The position numbers and the translations under genes are program-made. Under the pieces are notes generated by a model. It made no database searches. It was not told the DNA's origin and saw nothing but the letters and a program-made list of their open reading frames with translations. From Symbiotaphrina buchneri (lineage: Eukaryota > Ascomycota > Symbiotaphrinales > Symbiotaphrinaceae): a stretch of 64,000 nucleotides of DNA. This document shows, one piece after another, positions 17,545-49,452 of this stretch (the stretch's first letter is position 1; every line of letters starts with the position of its first letter). Location of the stretch: assembly GCA_001599915.1 (NCBI GenBank), contig BCIG01000001.1, forward strand, positions 1,240,001-1,304,000. Reading direction: 5' to 3'.

Positions 17545-20215
17545 TCATCCCTCCCTCCCCTCTCCCTCTCCCAGCCCAACACCCCTCTCCCTCCCCCTCC
17601 TCACAGCCGCCAAAGTCCGACCCACAGCCTCCAAATCACCCAGCAACGTAACATGGCCTCTCTCACTACTCACCCTCCCACCCCTTATACACTCATACCC
17701 TTTCGGCAACATACTCTCCCTCGCCAGCGCAACTCCATCACCACTCGCAAACACCAGATCATCATACGCGTCTGCGCGGCGGATCCCATCCCGCCCGCGC
17801 ACCCGCGCCCCGCTGACGGTCGGGATCGACTTGCCGTAGATGACTGCCAGCGGAGGATATAAGTTGGCGGCGCTGTGCGAGGGGACGTGGTGCAGTGCGC
17901 GCTTGAAGGCGAGGGTGCGCGAGAGCGTGCGTGCGAGGTAGGCGCGTGCGGCGCCGGGGGGTAAAGCGCAGGTGGTTGAGGAGGTGCTGGTGTTGGGGTG
18001 GTCGCTGGAGCGCATGGAGGGCGCGAGGGTTTTGTCTTTGTGCGTTTCAGCGAGCTCTTTTTTGGCATCACTAGGCGACGCGGGGCGGGCGTGCAGGGAG
18101 TTGCGTTTTCCCGGGAGGGGGAGGACGGAGAGGGAGCCGGAGAGGGGCTCGAAGATGGAGGGGAGGTTTGAGGAGGGGTTGAGTGGTGGTAATGCCGGAG
18201 CGATGCACGGTGAGAAGGCGTAGTCTTCCCAGGCTTGCGGGTTGAAGAAGTCGACGGGGTATTCTTCTTTGGTGAACTTGTCGACGAAGCACCGCCCATC
18301 TTCGGGGAGGAAGACGAAGCTCGTCCGGAAGGTGAAGTTTACTTGTGCGGTTAAGACGCGCGAACTGAGCAGGACTTGGTCGCCGTTTCGGATCGGCCCG
18401 AGGATGTTGACGCAGGTCTGGGGAACGCCCGCGTAGATGACCCCGGAGAACAGTGAGGGGTTCTGATTTACTGCGTGGCGGGTGATAAGTCCGCCGCAGG
18501 AGTGAGCGATGACGATCGCGCCCCGTTCTTGAGGTGGAGTATCAGGGGCGTTACAGGGCAGCCCTTCAAGGAACTCGGTCAACTTCCGGCTGAGGAGCCA
18601 TGGGCTCAACCGCCAGTCGTAACCATAATTCCAGATCCGGAGCTTCCCGGTTTGTGCATTTGGAGAATGCCGTAGCCGTTTGAATAACCGTCTTGATATA
18701 TCGACCGGGCCGATATGAGTCAGCATCCCATCAGGGATGATCCTCTCCTCCATCGTGTCCTCGTCTTCATCCTCTAAACCCACTTCTAGATCAACCTTTC
18801 GCAAGTTCAGACCGACCTTGACGGGAATCCAAAGTTGCCGGTGAGGAGGCTTCGCCGAACGAAGAATCGACCCTCTGTATCCTCCCATGATGACGATGTC
18901 ACCCGTCAAATGCGGAAGGATCGCATCGAAACTAGGATGTGGAGAGTCATTCTTTTTCGAAGTACCCGCTGTACCCGGTTCCCCCATCATCTTAGCCGCA
19001 GCTGCTCCAACAGGGTCTTGAGCAACGTCTTCAGCTCCCTCTTTTGCAGCTCCTAGCTTGTTGGCCTTGGTATCACCGGATGAAAGTAAGCTTGAAAAGG
19101 TTGGAAGTTCGGCATGGAAGGCATTCAGATGAAAGCTTGTCCTTGTCGGCAATCTAAAGCTTGAATCCTTGAGACTGTCTTTGATCGCTTTGACCCGACT
19201 ATTTACTTGCTCGTGGACACTCTCAAATCTTGTATCATCTCCTAGAGATGACGCCCGTGATAGTGTGCTGCGCAGGAACAGGGAGCCGTCGGACGTAGAC
19301 CGATGCAGAGATCTTGCTCTAGATAGTGATTGCCTTTCCGCCTCATGTTCTGCGTGTGCATCCATAGTCGTGGCACTTCTTGTCTGTGTCCTCCGCGGCT
19401 GCCCGGCTTCGGGGGTGTCCGAGCGGCTTGATTCGTAGAGCCCGCGGTTCTTTGGCTCTCCCGAAGGTGAAGCAAGCCTCCCGCTGCCGGTGCTAATCGA
19501 AGCATGAGCGGTACTCGGCCGAGGTGACGACGGCACACTGTTCAAATGTATTCCAGCGCTCCAAAGGATCTTGGAAAAACGAAAGTGTCCTTTCCATTCG
19601 CGGCTTCGGGGGCCCATTATCACTCCCTCTGCGGCTTCCCAAGAAAGACAACCGTGACGGCAAGCTCGGAACCGGGAGACTGGGTAGATCGGGCGTCTTC
19701 GGCAGCGAGGGCAAACTGAACGATGAAAAGTATTTTCTGAAGCCAGAATCCGGGATCAGGGTCGCCCTGCGCCTTAGCTTCTTTGTTGGCTTCACGCCCG
19801 GCTTCCACGGGGAAGGCGGTCGAAGCTTGACCTGTGTAGATTCCTGCTCTTCCTCCTTGTGTATATTCAGTGGTTGCACTCCAGATGGTGCATCCCTTGG
19901 TACATGCTTTTGTGTCTGCTCCTCCTCCTCAGCATCCTCGACAAGAGTACCATCCTCATCCTCGAACCGCTCGAGAACAGCCTGTCTCACCGCGACGGGC
20001 GTCTGCGGCGAAGCCAGGCGCGTCTGCGTGCGACTGATACTGACACCCAGGACCGACTGCGCATCTTCGCCCGACAGCCTTATTTCCGGATGATCTTCGT
20101 AGCCCGTCTCCGAGCCCGAGGTCGAGTCGTCGACGATGGAAGCATACTGCGTCCGAGGCGCTTCCTCGATACCCGCTGCCGGAGCAGCAGGACGCGATGC
20201 AGCAGGCGTGGTCAT
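17545..20215 (-). CDS. Large LCAT-like alpha/beta hydrolase; frame change near 19.5 kb unresolved
   Basis: Two long minus-strand frames overlap. The upstream one starts with the ATG at 20215 and is open to 19493; the downstream one is open to the stop at 17545. The first part is a disordered Ser/Pro/Glu-rich region ending with MERTLSFFQDPLERWNTFEQ. The second resumes as PSSPRPSTAHAS and holds the catalytic domain: GDIVIMGGYRGSIL, IWNYGYDWRLSP, the nucleophile elbow IAHSCGGLITRHAV, and a late DGVALARESMLP. This order fits lecithin:cholesterol-acyltransferase-type hydrolases. Joining the frames needs an intron of length 1 mod 3 or an indel between about 19600 and 19440; several weak sites exist and none stands out. 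Total length is about 850-900 aa. Substrate unknown, lipid ester likely. Confidence 0.78.
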
Positions 20216-21714: not shown

Positions 21715-24315
21715 TTAGCGGAATCGACCCGACTTATGAGCCAGTGGTGACGATGGCATAATTGCTCCACCACGCATAGGATCCCGGACCCTGCCACCGC
21801 GTGTGACAGGAGTCTGTCCAGTGCAGAAGATGCAGACATAGACAGCGGGCAGACTGTTGCGATTCAATCCCACGCACTTGACATGAAGCCAATTGGTGCA
21901 AGATTCGCTGGATAATGTTAACACTGCCTCAAGCGATTGAGAGTAGCAGCAACCCACCATTGAATCATCAGGCCTGAAGAGTTATAGTTGTCCCCACAAA
22001 CACACCGAGTATCTCCCGACATCTGGCTAAACCTGTCTGTGCTCGGTGTAACGCTGTCCGGGTCGGTGATCGTAGTAGGGGATATGTTGTTGAAGGATGA
22101 CATTTGGTGGTTATATGTCGGAGTCGAGGCAGGGGGCATGCGGGAGACAGGAACACGGCGGATGCTAGGACTGTAGAACTGGTTGTTGCTGTAGGATTGA
22201 CTCATCGCAGGCCCTGTTAATGCTCTGTTAGATAGGTTGGAAGCCAAATGGACAGCGGTCCTTACTACTCTGCCTTGCCCTAGCCTCAACAATCTTTCGC
22301 AAAGCATGTTGGGCATCGCCGTCAGTATCTGCATCCACCACTGTCTCTGCTTCGCTGGCGGGATCATCAAGAGCATCGCCGAATGGACCCATGGCGTTCA
22401 TTCGACCGGTATTGTTTTGTGATCGCACAGGCTGTTCTGCCAAGCTCGATAGAGACTGCATAGAGCTGTGGCGGGACATACCGAATGTTGGAATGGCTGA
22501 AATCTGGTTTCCTTTGGTCGACGATCTGGAAGCGGAAGCACTCAAAGGAGCGGTTTGGGGAAGTTGTTGCGGAAAAGTGAAGGATGAATTCCGGCTGAGA
22601 GTATAATTGAAGTCCTCGTCCGCTGAGGAATCGCTCTCACCAAGCTTCCAGCTTCCTTCAAGTCCCTTCCTGATATCGGTATCGGTACTGGATTCAGACT
22701 CATCCAGGATCACTTCGGTTTCAGTTTTAGCCCTCCCATTAGCGTCAATGGTGAACTTGACTTTGGTGCGCGTTCGCGGGCTGGGAGTGCCTGAGCAGGA
22801 ATCAACGGTAGCTACAGACTTGACCGGGGAGGGCCGCTGCTGAGGAGCCATATTCTCATGGTTCTGGTTTCTCTGAGGGATCCCCAGTGGCAAATGCACG
22901 CCTCTTCGGGGGTTGTATCGGTTTCCTCCAAGGGCGCTGTCAGTAGCGCTCCTTGTGAGACCAGGGCGAGCTGATTTCTTAGGCATCAATTTATTTTGAG
23001 GTCGTGGTTGTGCACCCCGCTGTTGCTGTACTCGTTGTGCCCTCTCCATTTCCTCAATTCTTGACTGCTCTTTCTGGTGCTGATATGGTTGCCTGTTATC
23101 CTGTGACATGTTGCCGGGGAGCGTCGCTGAGTTCTGCATATGTGATGGTGGAGGAGAGCTGGAAGTGACCAGCAAGTTAGGATTGACAGATGCTTCCGAT
23201 GTTGTGCGAGAAAGTTGTGGCTTTCTCTGAACAGATGCCGTGACAGGGAAAGGATGAAATGATTCGGAGGTCGAGTGAGACATATCGTTGAAGCTTGTCT
23301 GCTGAGCTCTCGACGTATCTGGTAGCCCACCCCCGAAAGGTGTACTCGGATCATTCACCGTGTTCTGCATAGGAGTGACTTGTTTGTTCATGTCCCCCCA
23401 TGAGAAGAAGTTATCATCACTGACTAGACCTTCTTCGAAAAAGCTATTACCACCGAAATCCATGCCCATGCCGCTCATGTTGTAATTGGGATCCCAAAAC
23501 AAATCGGCCTGTGGGAGGATAGGGGCAGTCGCAGGCCCGGACATGCCATAGCTGAACAAATCGGGCGAGAATTGATAGGACGTGAAGTTCTGAGGAGACT
23601 CGCCCAGCATGTCCAATGACATACCATTCGGCTTTGCCCTATTGCTGCCGGGCGTTGTCAATTTCTTGGGTCCAGCACTAAACGACCTTGCTGTTTCCTG
23701 TACGTCTGAATGCTTCGCTTTCCTTTTCGAGCCAGAAGCTCTAGTAGGAGGCGGCGTCTGCATTGACCGAGCAGATTGGGAACGTTGGAGGTTCTGGAAT
23801 GAGGACTCGGGTTTTGGAGGGGTAAAGGGATTGATAGAACCTTCGGCAAGACCTGCCCTTGTCGGCGATGGCATTGGGGATGAAGAAAGCCGCCGGCTAG
23901 GTTCTACCGGCGGAAGAGAGAGATTTGGATTGGGTGAGAGATGGTGGACATGTGCCGCAAGCTCTGCATTGAGTATATCCTGCTCAGAGAAAGAGCCCTG
24001 TTGACTTGTAGCAGTCAGCGGTCGTTGCCCGGAGGTACGCCGCGAGACTCGCTGGGGAGTCTTGAAGGAGGCAGTGTCGACTACATCCCCGGTGGACCAA
24101 TTCCCGCGGTGATCGAATGTTGCGGTGTGGTATTGTTTGGGGGTTCGAAATATAGCACCGAAGTCGGGGGCGGTTGCTGAAGTGGGAGTTGCTGAGGGTG
24201 TAGGAGGTTCTCCAAGGTAGGCAAAGCTGTTGAGACTGGTCAGCTTGAAAGAACTTTTATGCTCCGTCGTATGGTTTACTGACCCTGACATCTGACTATC
24301 CCAGCTCATAGTCAT
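21715..24315 (-). CDS. PHD-finger nuclear protein, 813 aa
   Basis: Four exons, 24315-24284, 24226-22266, 22213-21958 and 21907-21715. The first intron (57 nt) is in frame and open; I remove it because of its GTCAGT donor, CTGACC branch site and CAACAG acceptor, which turn the start into MTMSWDSQMSGFAYLGEPP. The protein is long, disordered and rich in Ser, Pro, Gln and Asn. A PHD finger is built only after the last splice: CVCG, then MIQCESC, WLHVKC and VCIFC, giving a C4HC3 zinc pattern near residues 725-775. A short Arg/Gly tail follows. PHD fingers read histone tails, so a chromatin or transcription role is likely. I cannot name an orthologue. Confidence 0.87.
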
Positions 24316-33714: not shown

Positions 33715-36360
33715 ATGTCCGGCGCACCCCATACCCAACCCGGACGCCCACCTGCCCAATCCCGTGGATCAAGATCTGGAATTAATCGCGGTCACCAGAA
33801 TAGCCAAGGAGGAGTTCACAATGGCGGTGTGGGGCCAGGCGCTGGCCCTGGAGTACCGCCAATAAGGGTGTCTACCAAGCAATCTCAGAATGCGTTGTAC
33901 GATCAGTTGCCAACTGGGGCTACCCACCACCAACAGCACCCACAGAGCCAGTATATACAGAATGCAAGCTTGGGAAACGAGGCATTGGAGGACTACAACT
34001 TCACTGCGACACAGGGGCTACATGGAGATGGCGCGAATAATCCATACGATGCGAATCTGGGGTTATTGAACTGGGATTGGGGCGATGTCAATTTCGATCC
34101 GAACACCGCATTCGGTGACTCCTACGAACCTCAAGGGGAGCTTCTACAGCTGTTCGAGGACCAGCAGCAGTTTCGCCAACCTATAAAACAGCAACCTGCG
34201 AAGCAGGAGTTCAATCTTCCTAATCAAGATACCGTTGTTCAAACAACTCCCCAGCCAGCACCTCAATCAAATGTCTTGCCAAATACTATGAGTGGTCTGC
34301 CTACGGTTGTACCACGGGCTCAACCAGCACCAGCCCAATCTTCGGTCAGGGCAGGCATGAAGAGGAAATCGCAATCAGAGCCATCGTCTGCTGTTGAAGG
34401 ACAACAGGTGTCTTCTGCTGGCCCTACAGATAAAGACGATTCGCCTCCTTCCAAAAAGTTTGCCAAACCTAGTCCTGCTTCTACGACAGATAGTAGTGTG
34501 AAAGACGGACAGAGTGGAGAGACTAGTGGTAAAGAAGAGAGCGCGTCAACCGCTCGACTGGTGAGCCGTGGGAATGATACACCCAGCTCGACAAGACAAC
34601 CGGAGAACCAGAGTACTGCACCAAGGCCGAAGCCTACTATCTCTCAAACTAGAGAGGATAGACAAAGCAGGAATGCTATTCCTGGAGTGATGCGAGCAGC
34701 TGTTGGTGACCCAAGGAGATCTTCTGGCAAGTCGAGCTTGCCGCAGGAGAAAGTGTTCCCCATCCAGATCGGGTCCGAACTGTTCAGGTTGTCCGGAGCA
34801 TCAATAGCATCTGATGGTAATGGTGCCTTCCCATATATCCTATTCGACCAAAGCTAAAAGGCCTAGAGCACCCTCATACTTCTCTCAGTGTTTTGAGGAA
34901 CAGCTTCGGAATCATGAAGACGATGCTGGCGGTGTGAGAACATTGTATATTGATCGGGACCCGGTCACATTTCGAGATATACTGCTCCATTTACAAGGTA
35001 CGATCCGCTCCGGGTTCCGACCTCGACCTATATTGACCGTCCTAGGGTATTACGTATATCCAAAAGATGGGCTGCATTTTGTGAGGCTCTTTGCAGATGC
35101 TCAGTTCTATAGTTGTGGGTTTAGCTTGGTCTCGTATCTCCGTAGTCTTGTTGACTCTTGATAGTACCACGCCTGATATCTCAACTTTTCGAATCAGAGA
35201 TTTATATGCATATTGGCGAACAACCATTCCGAATATCGCGAGATATATTCTCTTCTCCTGGCGACTCCCCGAACTTTTTTACTCTGGGCTTCCATATATT
35301 CTTCACAACGCCGAAGGAGGTGTTTCCCGGTCTGGACGGTAGAGGTCTACTTCGGCCGCCAGCTATTATGCCACCAAGCGTTCCTCATAGATCCGCGGAT
35401 GTGTTCCGAGATCTACTCCATGTATTGCGTGGATATCCCATACACATCAAGAACGAAGAACATCGAGCAGAACTTCTCCGGGACTGCCGTTATTACCACC
35501 TTCGTGGTCTCGAACAAAAGCTCATCAGTCATCACATCAGCTATAATCTGCGCCGGCAACGATCCGAGATCGTCATCCGGCTCGAAGACATTCGGCAATC
35601 CGGCATCACATTTGTCCCCGACTCTCACAGTGTATCCGCCCAAACTCCTGATACTCCTTCACGGCCAGTTCCACCTTGCCCGTCTGGTTGGGTACAATAC
35701 GCCCGCCCGTTCGTTGACGACGGACCACATGACCTCATCCTCGAATTAAGCGCCGCCGAATGTCACACGCTTGATCTTACAGACCACCGAGCCTCGTTCC
35801 ACGGCGATGCCAAGAAGCGCATCACCGCGCTGTTCCAAGTCGTCGCGAACAAGATGAACCTCCCGACCACGCAGCCACTGGGCCTAATGCTTCTCTCAAC
35901 CGGAGGCGGCGTCGCCGCACAGCCTGCCTCGCCTGGTAATACGCCTCTGAGCGAGGAGCGAGTCCGAATCCGCATCGACCCTGACGCGGACGTCATCGTT
36001 GACGGGGTCCCATATCATGGCTTCTCGAACACCCGTGAGCCTGAAGCGTCCGGGTCTAGTGACCCAGATGCTGAGCAGCAGCCGCCGGGCCCTTCGCGTA
36101 AGTCGAGCGAGGCCGGCCTGTCGCAGCACTCTGATGGCCCTTCTCCCGGTGCGAGGACGACTAGGTCTCGATGGCCCGGTAAGAGGGCGATCGCCGGGGC
36201 GGAGGATGGAGGCGAGTCGGTGGTGCAGAGGGGACAGTGGAGGCTGAGGGTGCAGAGTACACCTGACGGCAAAGGCGCGAAGGTGGTCCTCGTTGCGGTC
36301 AAGTTGGAGGTGGTCACGAATGAGAAGGCGAGGAATAAGGGGAGGGGCTTTTTGGGTTAG
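33715..36360 (+). CDS. BTB/POZ-type protein with long disordered N-terminus
   Basis: Four exons, 33715-34816, 34869-34997, 35046-35111 and 35165-36360, give 830 aa. The first half (about 365 residues) is disordered and Gln/Pro/Ser-rich. The BTB-like fold begins at FPIQIGSELFRLSGASIASD and continues after the first splice with APSYFSQCFEEQ, TLYIDRDPVTFRDILLHLQG, then YYVYPKDGLHFVRLFADAQFY. A second related module follows (IYMHIGEQPFRISRDIF, PNFFTLGFHIFF). The choice of acceptor at 34868 rather than a nearer AG rests on joining D to APSYFS. The third join gives FYIPRL and uses a weak GTTGTG donor, so it is the least sure. Fungal proteins of this type are probably potassium-channel-tetramerisation-like adaptors; the partner is unknown. 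Confidence 0.85.
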
Positions 36361-43835: not shown

Positions 43836-44924
43836 ATGGATTTCGCGTCTCTGATGTCCGCGCAAATCTCCCAAGCAAAATCCACGTCTCCCCCACCCAC
43901 ATCATCCAACTCCTCCAAATACATCAAACGCGGCGAAGCTGAAGCCGCCCGTGAAGCCGCCTACCGGGCCGAGCAAGCAGCCGCTGCCGCGGCGCGAGAG
44001 GAACGATTAGCAAAGAAGCGCAAAGCGGAGGAAGAAGAGGCTGAAAAGAAACGCGAACGAGAGGAGAAGCGACGGAAGTTGGCTGAAGAGTCTCGGCGAA
44101 AGAGAGAAGAGGAAGAAGCGAAGGCGGAGCGCGCAAGGCGGAAAAGGCTTGGGTTGCCTGAGCTGCCAGAGAGGAAGGAGAAGGAGGAGACGCCATTGGC
44201 GGAAGGAGAGGTGGATATTGAGGATGGTGAATTAGTGGAGCTCTTGAGACGTATGGGCGAGCCGGCAAGGTTGTTCGGAGAGTCTCATAGAGGACGATTG
44301 AGAAGATACAGGAAGTTAGAGGAGAGGGCGAAGACGCCGCAACCCAAAGCAGGCAATGGGCCGATCCCGACCGTCCTGGAGCCGGTGGAGCAAAAGGATA
44401 TGAAGGTTCCGCCGAAACCGCCTACGGACCCAGAAGCAAGGAAGTTCTTGTTCCGTCAACTGGCTTCGTACTTCAACATGGTGCTACGGGAATGGCAGAT
44501 TGCGCTTGCACAGCGCTCCGATGAAGTGAAACAGTCTTTCTCCGGAAAGGCAGCTACCAATGCATTGACATCGACACTTGAGCATCTACGGCCTCTCTTC
44601 GTCAAATTCGAACGCGGTGAGCTAGAGAAAGGGGTGTTGGATCCTATTGTGGAGATTGTATGTGCCGCACAGGAAAGAAGATATGTGGACGCCAATGACG
44701 GATACCTACGTCTCAGCATTGGGAAGGCGGCATGGCCCATCGGTGTTACTATGGTTGGTATTCACGAGCGAAGCGCACGGGAGAAGTTGCATGAGAGCGA
44801 CAAGAACCAAGCACACATCATGTCTGATGAAGTCACTCGGAAATTTTTGCAAGGGATCAAACGTTGCTTAAGCTTTGCACAGACTAGATGGCCGCCGGAG
44901 GACCAAGCACAGCTAATGGGCTGA
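43836..44924 (+). CDS. prp18: Pre-mRNA splicing factor Prp18
   Basis: Intronless, 362 aa. The first 110 residues are Ala/Glu/Lys/Arg-rich and probably a long charged helix. A splicing-factor motif follows (about residues 132-160, LVELLRRMGEPARLFGESHRGRLRRYRKLE), shared by Prp18 and Prp4. The Prp18 domain fills the C-terminal third: RQLASYFNMVLREWQ, LRPLFVKFERGELEKGVLDPIVEIV, RRYVDANDGYLRLSIGKAAWPIGVTMVGIHERSAREK. The family acts with Slu7 in the second catalytic step of splicing in the nucleus. The protein length and motif order are normal. The 3' end is 285 bp from the end of the first secreted-protein gene, which is convergent. Confidence 0.95.
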   Translation: MDFASLMSAQISQAKSTSPPPTSSNSSKYIKRGEAEAAREAAYRAEQAAAAAAREERLAKKRKAEEEEAEKKREREEKRRKLAEESRRKREEEEAKAERARRKRLGLPELPERKEKEETPLAEGEVDIEDGELVELLRRMGEPARLFGESHRGRLRRYRKLEERAKTPQPKAGNGPIPTVLEPVEQKDMKVPPKPPTDPEARKFLFRQLASYFNMVLREWQIALAQRSDEVKQSFSGKAATNALTSTLEHLRPLFVKFERGELEKGVLDPIVEIVCAAQERRYVDANDGYLRLSIGKAAWPIGVTMVGIHERSAREKLHESDKNQAHIMSDEVTRKFLQGIKRCLSFAQTRWPPEDQAQLMG

Positions 44925-45199
44925 TTCCTGGTAGTTTGGGAAGAGCAATGATCTGGAACAACGTGCCTGCGGAGGGATGCGTCCCTAGAATGAAGACATC
45001 TTGCATGATAACTCCTGTTCCATATTCGACTAAATCTGTGTTCTCAATTGCCTCCAGTCTTCTGACGGTCTCCGGTACCTCCTGCTCTTCGCATAAAATT
45101 GCAAGTCTGGCAGCATATCTTGGCTCTGCTCCGGTGAAAGTCCTCACGACTGCAAAGAAGATTCCGATGAGCTTTCTGCAAAGACACAAGTTCAATACA

Positions 45200-45209
45200 G
45201 TCGACTTAC
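45200..45209 (-). other. Splice-donor-like GTAAGT touching the stop codon of paralogue A
   Basis: GTAAGT begins at 45209 on the minus strand, right after the stop. Two CAG acceptors with pyrimidine-rich lead-ins occur 34 and 60 nt further on. A 3'-UTR intron would be the relic of the B and C intron position. Confidence 0.35.
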
Positions 45210-45488
45210 CTATATGCAGACTACTCTGTATGGGTCCTCCCGATATTCGCATCCGGTTGTGCAATTTGATGGTTCTCTCCACAGTGTCTCCGGCTGGCAC
45301 CTGTACGGCTGATCGTTGAGAATGCAATACCGTGGGTCTTTTTCGGAGCAGAAGCCAACGGGTGCGCCCCCCATGGCCAGGGGTCCGTCTGGTTGTATGG
45401 GCTTCTTATGGTGTGGAAGGGAGAGGGCGGGCTGTGACATCAACAGAATGAGGAACCCGAGGATCAGCTGCACTCCTGAGAGACCCAT
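45210..45488 (-). CDS. Small secreted six-cysteine protein, paralogue A
   Basis: 92 aa from the ATG at 45488. A hydrophobic signal peptide (MGLSGVQLILGFLILLMSQPALS) precedes a Pro/His/Lys-rich spacer and a mature part with exactly six cysteines spaced C-x7-C-x8-C-x11-C-x3-C-x10-C. The last cysteine is followed by one residue and the stop. The stop codon TAG is directly followed by a strong GTAAGT splice donor, at nearly the place where paralogues B and C have their last intron. An asparagine glycosylation site (NCT) lies between cysteines 4 and 5. It is the first of three same-strand genes sharing the pattern. I know no named family for it; effector, antimicrobial or signalling roles are all possible. 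Confidence 0.8.
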   Translation of the reverse strand: MGLSGVQLILGFLILLMSQPALSLPHHKKPIQPDGPLAMGGAPVGFCSEKDPRYCILNDQPYRCQPETLWREPSNCTTGCEYREDPYRVVCI

Positions 45489-45833
45489 CGCAGCTGGTTT
45501 AGAATCCTCTCGACGGTGATTTGTTGCACCTGTGGAAATGTGCGGAGATACTTCTGAGGCGGAAAACTCTACATGGAGGCTTGGTGGTAGTCTATATAGG
45601 GTGGGTTGACACCTTGATGGAGAGGGCAATACATTTCCAACCGTTACAACATTGCTCGTGGTATCGTACATCTGCAACGCATCCCGACACTGACAAAAGT
45701 CCCATCCGATTTATACATCAAAATGGCGAAAAAGGTGATGCGCATTGAGCTCGTCGCCTTCCGCCATCCCCATCGCATCGTAGAGGGCAAAATCCCCAAC
45801 ACCCGTCAACCACAACCACCCTAGCCATCAAAA
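45489..45833. other. Spacer between paralogues A and B, promoter of A
   Basis: 345 bp with a TATA-like element (next entry) about 105 bp upstream of the A start. No further gene. Confidence 0.5.
45592..45598 (-). promoter_or_regulatory. TATA-like element of paralogue A
   Basis: TATATAG on the coding strand, 104-110 bp upstream of the ATG. B has ATATATTAA and C a GTATAC at about 100-110 bp upstream of their starts. Confidence 0.4.
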
Positions 45834-46203
45834 TCACTCCTAAAAATCCAAATCAGCTTTCATCCCACAAAAACATCATCCACAAGAAACCTACACAATG
45901 CACAAACGTCTTGTACTGCTCCCTAGCATCCGCACTGAACTGCATGGTGACCAGGCCGCAGTTGGTGATACACTCCCCGATCAGCGATGTGCCGGACTTC
46001 TGGCAGTACGCTATTGTGTTAGTGATGTTGCAGTACTGCGGGTGGTCCTCGACGCAGGTGCCGTTCCCGATCAGCCGCAGCTGCGGCTCCAGCGTGTGCG
46101 GGTCGTGTGGTTGCGGTAGTGCCGTTGGTGCGTGGTGTTTCTTTGGGGCGGGGAGCGCGAGGGACAGGAGTGGGAGGAGGGGGAGGATGATGAGGGAGCG
46201 CAT
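45834..46203 (-). CDS. Small secreted six-cysteine protein, paralogue B
   Basis: Exons 46203-45895 and 45839-45834 give 104 aa. The signal peptide is MRSLIILPLLPLLSLALPAP-like. The mature part has six cysteines spaced C-x7-C-x8-C-x10-C-x3-C-x20-C, the third block of which carries two N-glycosylation sites (NGT, NIT). The 55-nt intron (GTAGGT donor, CTGAT branch, TTTTTAG acceptor) follows directly after the codon of cysteine 6; splicing yields HCE and stop. Without splicing, 14 extra residues rich in Trp, Phe and Met would follow, unlike A and C. It lies between A and C on the same strand, each with its own promoter. Function unknown. Confidence 0.78.
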
Positions 46204-46633
46204 TTTTGAGGGTTTTGGTTTTGCCTTTTTGTTCGGGATGCGCGAGATAAAAGGATTTGTTTGTTTGAAGAGAAAGGAAGAAAGTTTTGAGGAGGGATTA
46301 ATATATCGTTGTTGTTGGATTTCCGTTATAGGTATCACCAAGGTGTTGGAGATGCTACACCAAATTGGGACACTTGACGCAGCAACCTAAAACTTTTGCA
46401 GGAGAGGTAGAGAACCGCCATCCAATCCGAAGTATAACATAAGCCAGCTTTTTTGATTCCGTCCGTCGTGAAACCCTTCTGCGGAGAGTATAGGTAGTGA
46501 TACTCATGCCACTATCTCATAACCCCCAACGGCCCCTATCCGCCTCGCAATCGCAGCTGGCTCCTAATACAACTCCCATCTGTTCAAGATCCCGTCCCTC
46601 ACAATGCGAGCTTCATAACCGGTGATCCTCCCA
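46204..46633. other. Spacer between paralogues B and C, promoter of B
   Basis: 430 bp holding the B promoter blocks described separately and the 3' end of C. No other gene. Confidence 0.5.
46334..46361 (-). promoter_or_regulatory. Promoter blocks of paralogue B shared with C
   Basis: On the coding strand GGTGTAGC is followed, 12 nt later, by ACCTTGGTGAT; the latter ends 131 bp upstream of the B start. The same two blocks in the same order precede C. They are probably binding sites or remains of duplication. Confidence 0.45.
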
Positions 46634-46958
46634 CTAATACTGCAACTCAATCAGCCCCCTGTAGACGTTCATAGAAACCGTCCCAAACACTTACACAGTT
46701 GACATACAAATGGCGTTGCGAGAAAAGACGGAACTTGCTGGTGCACCCGTCCACGCAGGGCGCCATGTTGGTGCAGTCGTGCATGCGGCCGCGGATCTTG
46801 CACTGGCCCTTGTGCGCGGGCTCGCAGGTGCCTTCCCCTTTGTATTCCGGTGGTGGTGTGTGGTCCCAGGGCGCGGGCACGGGGTACGGGTGCCCGAGGA
46901 TGGGGATGCCCAGGAAGAAAAGTAGGGGCAGCAGGAGCAGGATGCGTAGGGGTTTCAT
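46634..46958 (-). CDS. Small secreted six-cysteine protein, paralogue C
   Basis: Exons 46958-46695 and 46639-46634 give 89 aa. The start at 46958 has a fine context (AAAATGA) and opens a signal peptide, MKPLRILLLLPLLFFLGIPILG. A Pro-rich spacer leads to six cysteines spaced C-x7-C-x8-C-x5-C-x3-C-x15-C. A 55-nt intron (GTAAGT donor, CTGAT branch, TTGCAG acceptor) follows directly after the cysteine-6 codon, so the protein ends NCY. Read through, it would gain 15 unrelated residues. Intron length, phase and place are the same as in B. The loop between cysteines 3 and 4 is the shortest of the three. Function unknown. Confidence 0.8.
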
Positions 46959-47656: not shown

Positions 47657-49452
47657 ATGTCCCTCTACTACGACGCTGCGCGCTTTCTGGAGAACGCGCC
47701 TAACCATGGCGGCTCCCTCAAATCGCGCGTCTACGGCGCGAAGGATCTTAAATCCAAGCCGGCGCATGTGTATGCGCTCATAGCGGAGACCGTTAAGTGG
47801 AGCCCCGTGCTGAGGGAGGTTATTGAGAAGGCGGACTTTTTGGCTAGTGAAAGAAAGGTGTGTGTCTCCTGTGCTGGGTGTGTTTCTTTTCTTTTGCTTC
47901 GCGCCGGCTTGAGGCTTGAAGTGCAGGACCAGAACCTTGTTAAGGTGCAGGGGCTGATGTCACGGGCGAACCACAGCTTACACCCGTCCTGTCTCTCCTG
48001 CTGGTGCATGACCTGCTGCTGGCAAAGAGTGGCGTTGCAGCGGCAGTGGCGCACCCATTGAAGGTCGCGATCACACGGCACAAGGCCCGTCTACAGGCGG
48101 AGTTCACCAAGGCCCGAATACGGCGGGGGTTCAGCTCCGTCGAAGAACTCAAGGCTAGTGTCAAAGCGAGCGGACGCGGGTTAGGCGGATCAGAAGCGCA
48201 GGCAGGACAACATCCGCGATGGGTTCGTGTCAACGCAATTCGTACGAGCTTGGAGGAGCAATTGCCTGCCACGTTCGCGGGGTACAAGCGGGCGGAGACA
48301 TTGCGGGAGGTCATGGAGGCTGCTGTGACCGAGAAGATCTTGCACGTGGATGGAAACATACCGAGTCTCCTCGCTTTGCCGCCGGGAACGGACCTTACGG
48401 GCACGACTACATATACAAGGGGAGAGATCATTCTTCAGGACAAGGCGTCGTGTTTCCCAGCACACCTGCTCGACCCTGCGGCGCTTTCAGGGGATGTCAT
48501 CGATGCTTGCGCAGCTCCAGGGAACAAGACCACACATCTAGCGGCGTTCGTCAGCTCAGAAGTTGCGACGGCAGCGGAGGGCCGAACTATATACGCTTGT
48601 GAGCGGGATAAAATACGCTCGGAAACCCTGGCCAAAATGGTCGAGTGGGCAGGCGCGGGCGAGCTCGTCCAGGTTAACAAGAACCAGGACTTCCTCCGCA
48701 TCAGTCCAGAGGACAGGATTTACGCCAACGTAGGCGCCATTCTGCTCGATCCTTCATGCTCCGGCAGCGGCATCGTCGGCCGAGACGATGCGCTTCCTCA
48801 GCTCGAGCTCCCGAGCCGTAAACGAGCATCTGATCATGGCACACCCAGCGCGAAAAGCAAGAAACGGAAACGAGGATCCGATAAGCCAGACACGGCTTCT
48901 AAACCTGCAGACCCAGAAGCAGAAGAATCAGCAGCTCCACCGGAAGACGAAGACGCGGATAAGTTGAATCAGCGCCTAGCATCCCTCTCCGCGTTCCAAC
49001 TGAAACTCCTTCTGCACGCCTTCCGCTTCCCCGCTGCGAGAAGGGTGGTGTATAGCACGTGCTCTGTACACGCGGAGGAGAACGAGATGGTCGTCTTCAA
49101 GGCGCTGAAGTCGAGTATAGCAAAAGAGAGGGGATGGCGGATCTTGAAGAGGGAAGAGCAGGTTGATGGCTTGAGACGCTGGCCTCATCGCGGTGTTGAG
49201 GTCGATGCGGAAGGTCTTGATACGTCCGTGCACAAACCAGATGTGGTGGAGGCGTGTATACGCTGTAATAAAGGAGGGGATGGAGAGGGGACTATGGGGT
49301 TCTTTGTCGCGGGATTTGTAAGAGATGGGGAGGTCCAGGATGCGAGGGCACCAGTAGATGGGAATGGCGGATTGAACGGCCATCATGGGAGGGAGATACC
49401 CCACGGTGCGGATGAGGATGAAGAGGAATGGAACGGCTTCGACGATGATTGA
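47657..49452 (+). CDS. rcm1: NSUN5/Rcm1-type rRNA cytosine-5 methyltransferase
   Basis: Exons 47657-47857 and 47977-49452 encode 558 aa. The start MSLYYDAARFLENA matches the family N-terminus. The intron (119 nt) is in phase 0 and joins ASERK to LTPVLSLLLVHDLLLA. The Rossmann-fold motifs are VIDACAAPGNKTTHLAA for S-adenosylmethionine (about residue 241), ILLDPSCSGSGIV (about 325), with the assisting cysteine, and VVYSTCSVHAEENE (about 425), with the nucleophile cysteine. Between the last two sits a long Lys/Glu-rich insert with KKRKR, a likely nucleolar signal. Yeast Rcm1 methylates a single cytosine in 25S rRNA. The acidic C-terminal tail (EEEWNGFDDD) is common in fungi. Confidence 0.92.

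What the first reader, a model, noticed from the sequence alone, without database searches (positions are those of the whole stretch)
45210..46958. Tandem cluster of three small secreted proteins with a common six-cysteine pattern
Three consecutive minus-strand genes encode 89-104 aa proteins, each with a signal peptide, a Pro/His/Lys-rich spacer and exactly six cysteines spaced C-x7-C-x8-C-x5-11-C-x3-C-x10-20-C. The first two gaps and the x3 gap are identical in all three; only the other loops vary and the rest of the sequence has little in common. The last cysteine is at the very C-terminus. I recall no named family with this spacing. Tandem, fast-changing secreted proteins of this kind are often effectors, antimicrobials or self/non-self factors.
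Basis: partly seen in the sequence, partly recalled or inferred. Interest (0 to 1): 0.75.

Follow-up and report, generated by a model that had tools for sequence, protein, structure and literature searches.

The report
Three related secreted fungal cysteine-rich proteins
A fungus carries three neighbouring, long-diverged copies of a gene for a small, apparently secreted, cysteine-rich protein that matched no catalogued family and may fold like the antifungal mini-proteins of moulds, so it looks like a real but small new family whose job still has to be tested.

The parts
46695..46958 (-). gene A, exon 1 (88 codons, ends with the sixth Cys codon)
   Evidence: own-genome matches: itself, gene B, and one place dropped as spurious
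46640..46694 (-). gene A intron, 55 nt, phase 0, GTAAGT...GCTGATT...CAG
   Evidence: inferred from splice signals; no transcripts
46634..46639 (-). gene A, exon 2: one codon (Tyr) plus stop
46893..46958 (-). gene A, likely signal peptide (end approximate)
   Evidence: hydropathy; end is inference
46800..46832 (-). gene A, gamma-core-like GXC-x7-C (GTC...C)
   Evidence: sequence against the motif given in PMC11423270 (passages)
45895..46203 (-). gene B, exon 1 (103 codons, ends with the sixth Cys codon)
   Evidence: matches A at E 0.024 in the own genome
45840..45894 (-). gene B intron, 55 nt, phase 0, GTAGGT...GCTGATT...TAG
   Evidence: inferred from splice signals; no transcripts
45834..45839 (-). 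gene B, exon 2: one codon (Glu) plus stop
46144..46203 (-). gene B, likely signal peptide (end approximate)
   Evidence: hydropathy; end is inference
46030..46062 (-). gene B, gamma-core-like GXC-x7-C (GTC...C)
45210..45488 (-). gene C, single coding exon, 92 aa, ends C-I-stop
45150..45209 (-). intron-like stretch (60 nt, GTAAGT...TTTGCAG) that begins right after the stop codon of gene C; perhaps a 3' UTR intron
   Evidence: read by eye; post hoc, inference
45420..45488 (-). gene C, likely signal peptide (end approximate)
   Evidence: hydropathy; end is inference
45324..45356 (-). gene C, gamma-core-like GXC-x7-C (GFC...C)

Best explanation
Three tandem paralogues of a secreted mini-protein family that may be restricted to one lineage. 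Each is made as a precursor (signal peptide, Pro/His-rich spacer, cysteine domain of about 45-55 residues), secreted, and locked by three disulfides into a small all-beta domain that works like the mould antifungal proteins (AFP/PAF kind): a gamma-core hairpin at C1-C2 and a five-strand barrel. Outside the cell it probably acts on membranes or walls of competing microbes, each paralogue diverged towards another target or condition. Shown: the open frames, the spacing, A-B and B-C similarity. Inferred: splicing, secretion, disulfides. Weakly supported: the AFP-like fold. Guess: the antimicrobial role.
Confidence: 0.4

Rival explanations
1. Host-directed secreted effectors: disulfide-stable beta-barrel proteins released into the tissue of a host or partner to blunt its defence, as described for SIB1 of Colletotrichum orbiculare, a six-Cys five-strand protein. 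(Odds overlap with the fold question below.)
Confidence: 0.25
2. Endogenous role: cell-wall, development or self-recognition proteins acting on the producing fungus, as proposed for some AFPs (anafp, paf) besides inhibition of others.
For: Argued for AnAFP (PMC5106034 abstract and passages) and PAF (PMC3103751, search listing only).
Against: Strong divergence between the three and no orthologue found argue against a conserved role, but near relatives are hardly sampled.
Confidence: 0.2
3. Six-Cys secreted proteins of a fold not yet known, for which AFPs are only the nearest small beta structures in the PDB. (A statement on fold; overlaps with the role rivals.)
For: Weak scores, profile comparison at noise, own Cys spacing.
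Against: The eleven best VIA rows are of one kind, of the right size, with a gamma-core at the same place.
Confidence: 0.3
4. Kazal-type protease inhibitors (order of gaps resembles Kazal C-x7-C-x10-C-x2,3-C; pattern recalled, from no call).
For: Coarse spacing only.
Against: No Pfam match of any kind at E up to 10; gap before C3 is 8 not 7; no Tyr between C3 and C4 in any of the three; no helix in the model of C.
Confidence: 0.03
5. Unrelated genes that share the spacing by convergence.
For: A-C loops are no more alike than shuffles (331 of 2000); C finds neither A nor B in the own genome.
Against: B links both; A and B share the terminal intron; all three are adjacent on one strand.
Confidence: 0.04

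Closest known systems
AFP/PAF antifungal proteins of Eurotiales and other ascomycetes (Pfam PF11402)
   Same: Precursor with leader and spacer; six Cys in about 50 residues; gamma-core GXC-x3-9-C at C1-C2; five strands in the model of C; PAF ends with Cys plus one residue
   Different: AFP spacing is C-x6-C-x11/12-C-x4..9-C-x6-C-x10..13-C (PMC6027536 passage) against x7, x8, 5-11, x3, 10-20 here; no Pfam or profile match; B and C not cationic; AFP class A and B genes have two introns (PMC6182064 passage), A and B here show one, at the very end
SIB1 effector of Colletotrichum orbiculare
   Different: Other Cys spacing; SIB1 has one parallel strand pair and neighbour disulfides (C3-C4 and C5-C6 by mass spectrometry, C1-C2 expected; PMC8633582 passages), not testable here
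Small secreted cysteine-rich proteins of fungi in general (candidate effectors)
   Same: Size, leader, Cys content, tandem place, no known domain
   Different: A fixed spacing of its own; a terminal intron shared by A and B

Membership tests
AFP/PAF antifungal proteins | Profile match to PF11402 Antifungal_prot | tested here: not met
   No Pfam match for the full proteins at E up to 1 or for the domains at E up to 10 (HMMER drops most matches above 0.1). PF11402 found nothing in the own genome, but rang in 0 of 14 control genomes too, so says nothing
AFP/PAF antifungal proteins | Cys spacing C-x6-C-x11/12-C-x4..9-C-x6-C-x10..13-C | tested here: not met
   Gaps 7, 8, 5/10/11, 3, 15/20/10 against the published pattern
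AFP/PAF antifungal proteins | gamma-core GXC-x3-9-C at C1-C2 | tested here: met
   GTC-x7-C, GTC-x7-C, GFC-x7-C; definition. A short, unspecific motif
AFP/PAF antifungal proteins | Five-strand antiparallel barrel | tested here: inconclusive
AFP/PAF antifungal proteins | Profile similarity beyond Cys | tested here: not met
   hhalign score reached by 87 of 200 decoys
AFP/PAF antifungal proteins | Net positive charge | tested here: not met
   Domain K+R minus D+E: A +3, B -3, C -2; PAF +4, NFAP +6, but PeAfpB 0 by the same count; so met by A only, and a soft criterion
AFP/PAF antifungal proteins | Disulfides C1-C4, C2-C5, C3-C6 | not testable with these tools
   No model coordinates or mass data at hand
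AFP/PAF antifungal proteins | Growth inhibition of fungi | not testable with these tools
   Bench experiment
SIB1-like effectors | Cys spacing x5, x10, x4, x7, x12 | tested here: not met
   against Cys positions
SIB1-like effectors | Five-strand fold with one parallel pair | tested here: inconclusive
Kazal-type inhibitors | Pfam match, x7 gap before C3, Tyr in the next loop (recalled pattern) | tested here: not met

The most novel reading that the evidence does not exclude
A new clade of AFP-like gamma-core mini-proteins, with its own cysteine frame and a terminal intron, kept as three strongly diverged tandem paralogues in a thinly sampled ascomycete lineage, two of them not cationic and so possibly turned from antifungal to another target.
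Probability: 0.3. Interest if true: 0.55.

Novelty: new variant of a known kind. Interest (0 to 1): 0.38.

Why it matters
Secreted six-Cys beta-barrels are used by moulds against rivals and, in SIB1, against plants. A trio with that layout but another cysteine frame and, in two of three, no net positive charge would help show how one scaffold moves between those uses, and offers three mini-proteins for antifungal screens. If the fold lead fails, it remains one more orphan family of small secreted proteins, a common thing in fungi.

Tried and rejected
Family and sequence searches: Pfam, NCBIfam (a library for bacteria and archaea), PDB sequences singly and as a profile (only A had a row, photosystem II protein Z at E 0.89, through its leader), the protein database with the three-row alignment (275 word-sharing candidates, none at E up to 10) and with B alone (20 candidates, none). 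The protein database search needs shared 5-residue words, and Prp18 shows that the nearest sampled species are far away, so absence is weak evidence. PHROGs, PADLOC and Rfam were not searched.

Own genome: the third match of A (contig C13, E 0.024, one stop inside) was inspected and dropped: no such Cys frame, upstream of an unrelated longer ORF. Domain-only searches found only the queries themselves. Telomere position: the last 373 bases of the contig show no telomere repeat. A Prp18 tree puts the fungus beside Eurotiomycetes without real support (80/31; 48 of the 120 listed proteins, chosen by hand, plus the window).

Papers: the literal search for the first two gaps gave two papers, an eight-Cys hydrophobin-like protein and a ten-Cys spider family, neither the same. 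The effector-structure paper PMC9816061 has no mention of antifungal, KP6 or knottin in its main text.

Full report
What is there. Between a Prp18 splicing-factor gene (43836-44924, +; Pfam E 2.3e-54) and an NSUN5-type RNA methyltransferase gene (48313-49452, +) lie three small genes on the minus strand. A (46958-46634) gives 89 aa, B (46203-45834) 104 aa, C (45488-45210) 92 aa. Each has a hydrophobic leader, a spacer rich in Pro and His, and six cysteines with gaps 7, 8, 5/10/11, 3 and 15/20/10. The last Cys is followed by one residue in all three. The spacing occurs nowhere else in six frames of the window nor in 206,572 further bases of the same contig; a first-order Markov model gives 0.013 expected cores per 64 kb, the pattern having been fixed after seeing the three.

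Gene structure. In A and B the codon of the last Cys is followed at once by a 55-nt stretch with donor, GCTGATT branch-like site and acceptor, then one codon and a stop. TGY + donor + branch site + acceptor + one codon + stop is found at 2 of 17,865 TGY sites in the 270,572 bases scanned, and these two are A and B; without the branch site there are 5 such sites. The pattern was drawn up from A and B, so the figure describes rarity and is no blind test. Gene C ends C-I-stop; an intron-like stretch of 60 nt starts right after its stop codon (read), 6 nt further on than in A and B, in the untranslated part. I take it as a hint only.

Paralogy. In the own genome (23.38 Mb, 82 contigs) A finds B at E 0.0046 and B finds A at 0.024; C finds only itself. 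These hits include the hydrophobic leader, and a place on contig C13 that I judge spurious also scored 0.024 with A, so the E-values alone do not prove kinship. With cysteines fixed and the loop residues (plus four before C1) shuffled, the observed score is reached in 1 of 2000 (A-B), 7 of 2000 (B-C) and 331 of 2000 (A-C) shuffles. B thus links the other two. Domain-only searches found no further copies; the search scores only candidates of a first look, so distant copies may be missed.

Relatives. None in Pfam, NCBIfam, PDB sequences or the protein database. The database does hold fungi: Prp18 found 2675 relatives at E up to 1e-10 among 7997 scored candidates, but the best are 70% identical (Candelina, Coniosporium), and a Prp18 tree places the fungus only loosely. 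So 'orphan' here may mean a lineage without near relatives in the database as much as fast evolution.

Tests of that lead. For: all three proteins carry GXC-x7-C at C1-C2, the dextromeric gamma-core of the AFP and PAF clades (PMC11423270, passages); the same review gives a prepro-sequence and 50-60 mature residues for AFPs; PAF too ends with Cys plus one residue; 9 of 9 Cys-anchored comparisons with PAF, PeAfpB and NFAP lie above the shuffle mean, reached by 23 to 777 of 2000 shuffles, two of them under 5% without correction. Against: profile comparison at noise (87 of 200 decoys as good), another Cys spacing than CX6CX(11-12)CX(4-9)CX6CX(10-13)C (PMC6027536, passage), B and C not cationic, no Pfam match (the genome search with PF11402 had no working control). 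Hence not a member of the AFP family on the tests made; 'works like one' stays open.

Mechanism. Shown: frames, spacing, kinship of A-B and B-C. Inferred from sequence: splicing, secretion and three disulfides. Weakly supported: an AFP-like barrel. The role is a choice between attack on other microbes (favoured by fold lead and gamma-core), host-directed effector (favoured by charge and by SIB1, whose paper reports suppression of chitin- and flg22-triggered responses, while its knockout was not needed for virulence; PMC8633582 abstract and passages) and a role in the own colony (as argued for AnAFP; PMC5106034 abstract and passages). I put the first slightly ahead.

Novelty. Of ten paper searches, only looked for the spacing itself, as literal strings of the first two gaps; 25 and 49 concerned the organism. 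No paper with this spacing turned up, in a library without most subscription journals. Small secreted Cys-rich orphans are common in fungi (general knowledge), so the find is a new variant of a known kind with moderate interest.

Noticed in passing
L007:96-241 (own genome contig C1, left end): Tandem array with a 41-bp unit, 3.6 copies, close to the start of the contig; it may be why the assembly ends there.
   Followed up: no
17548-19617 and 22231-24315, minus strand; 33715-34854, plus strand: Long open frames of 690, 695 and 380 aa without any Pfam match at E up to 0.001.
   Followed up: no
45150-45209, minus strand: Intron-like stretch directly after the stop codon of gene C, at nearly the place where A and B have their introns.
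   Followed up: partly
46203-45895 and 46958-46695: Third-position GC of 0.81-0.82 in A and B, well above C (0.63), Prp18 (0.58) and the NSUN5-type gene (0.59); might mean high expression.
   Followed up: no
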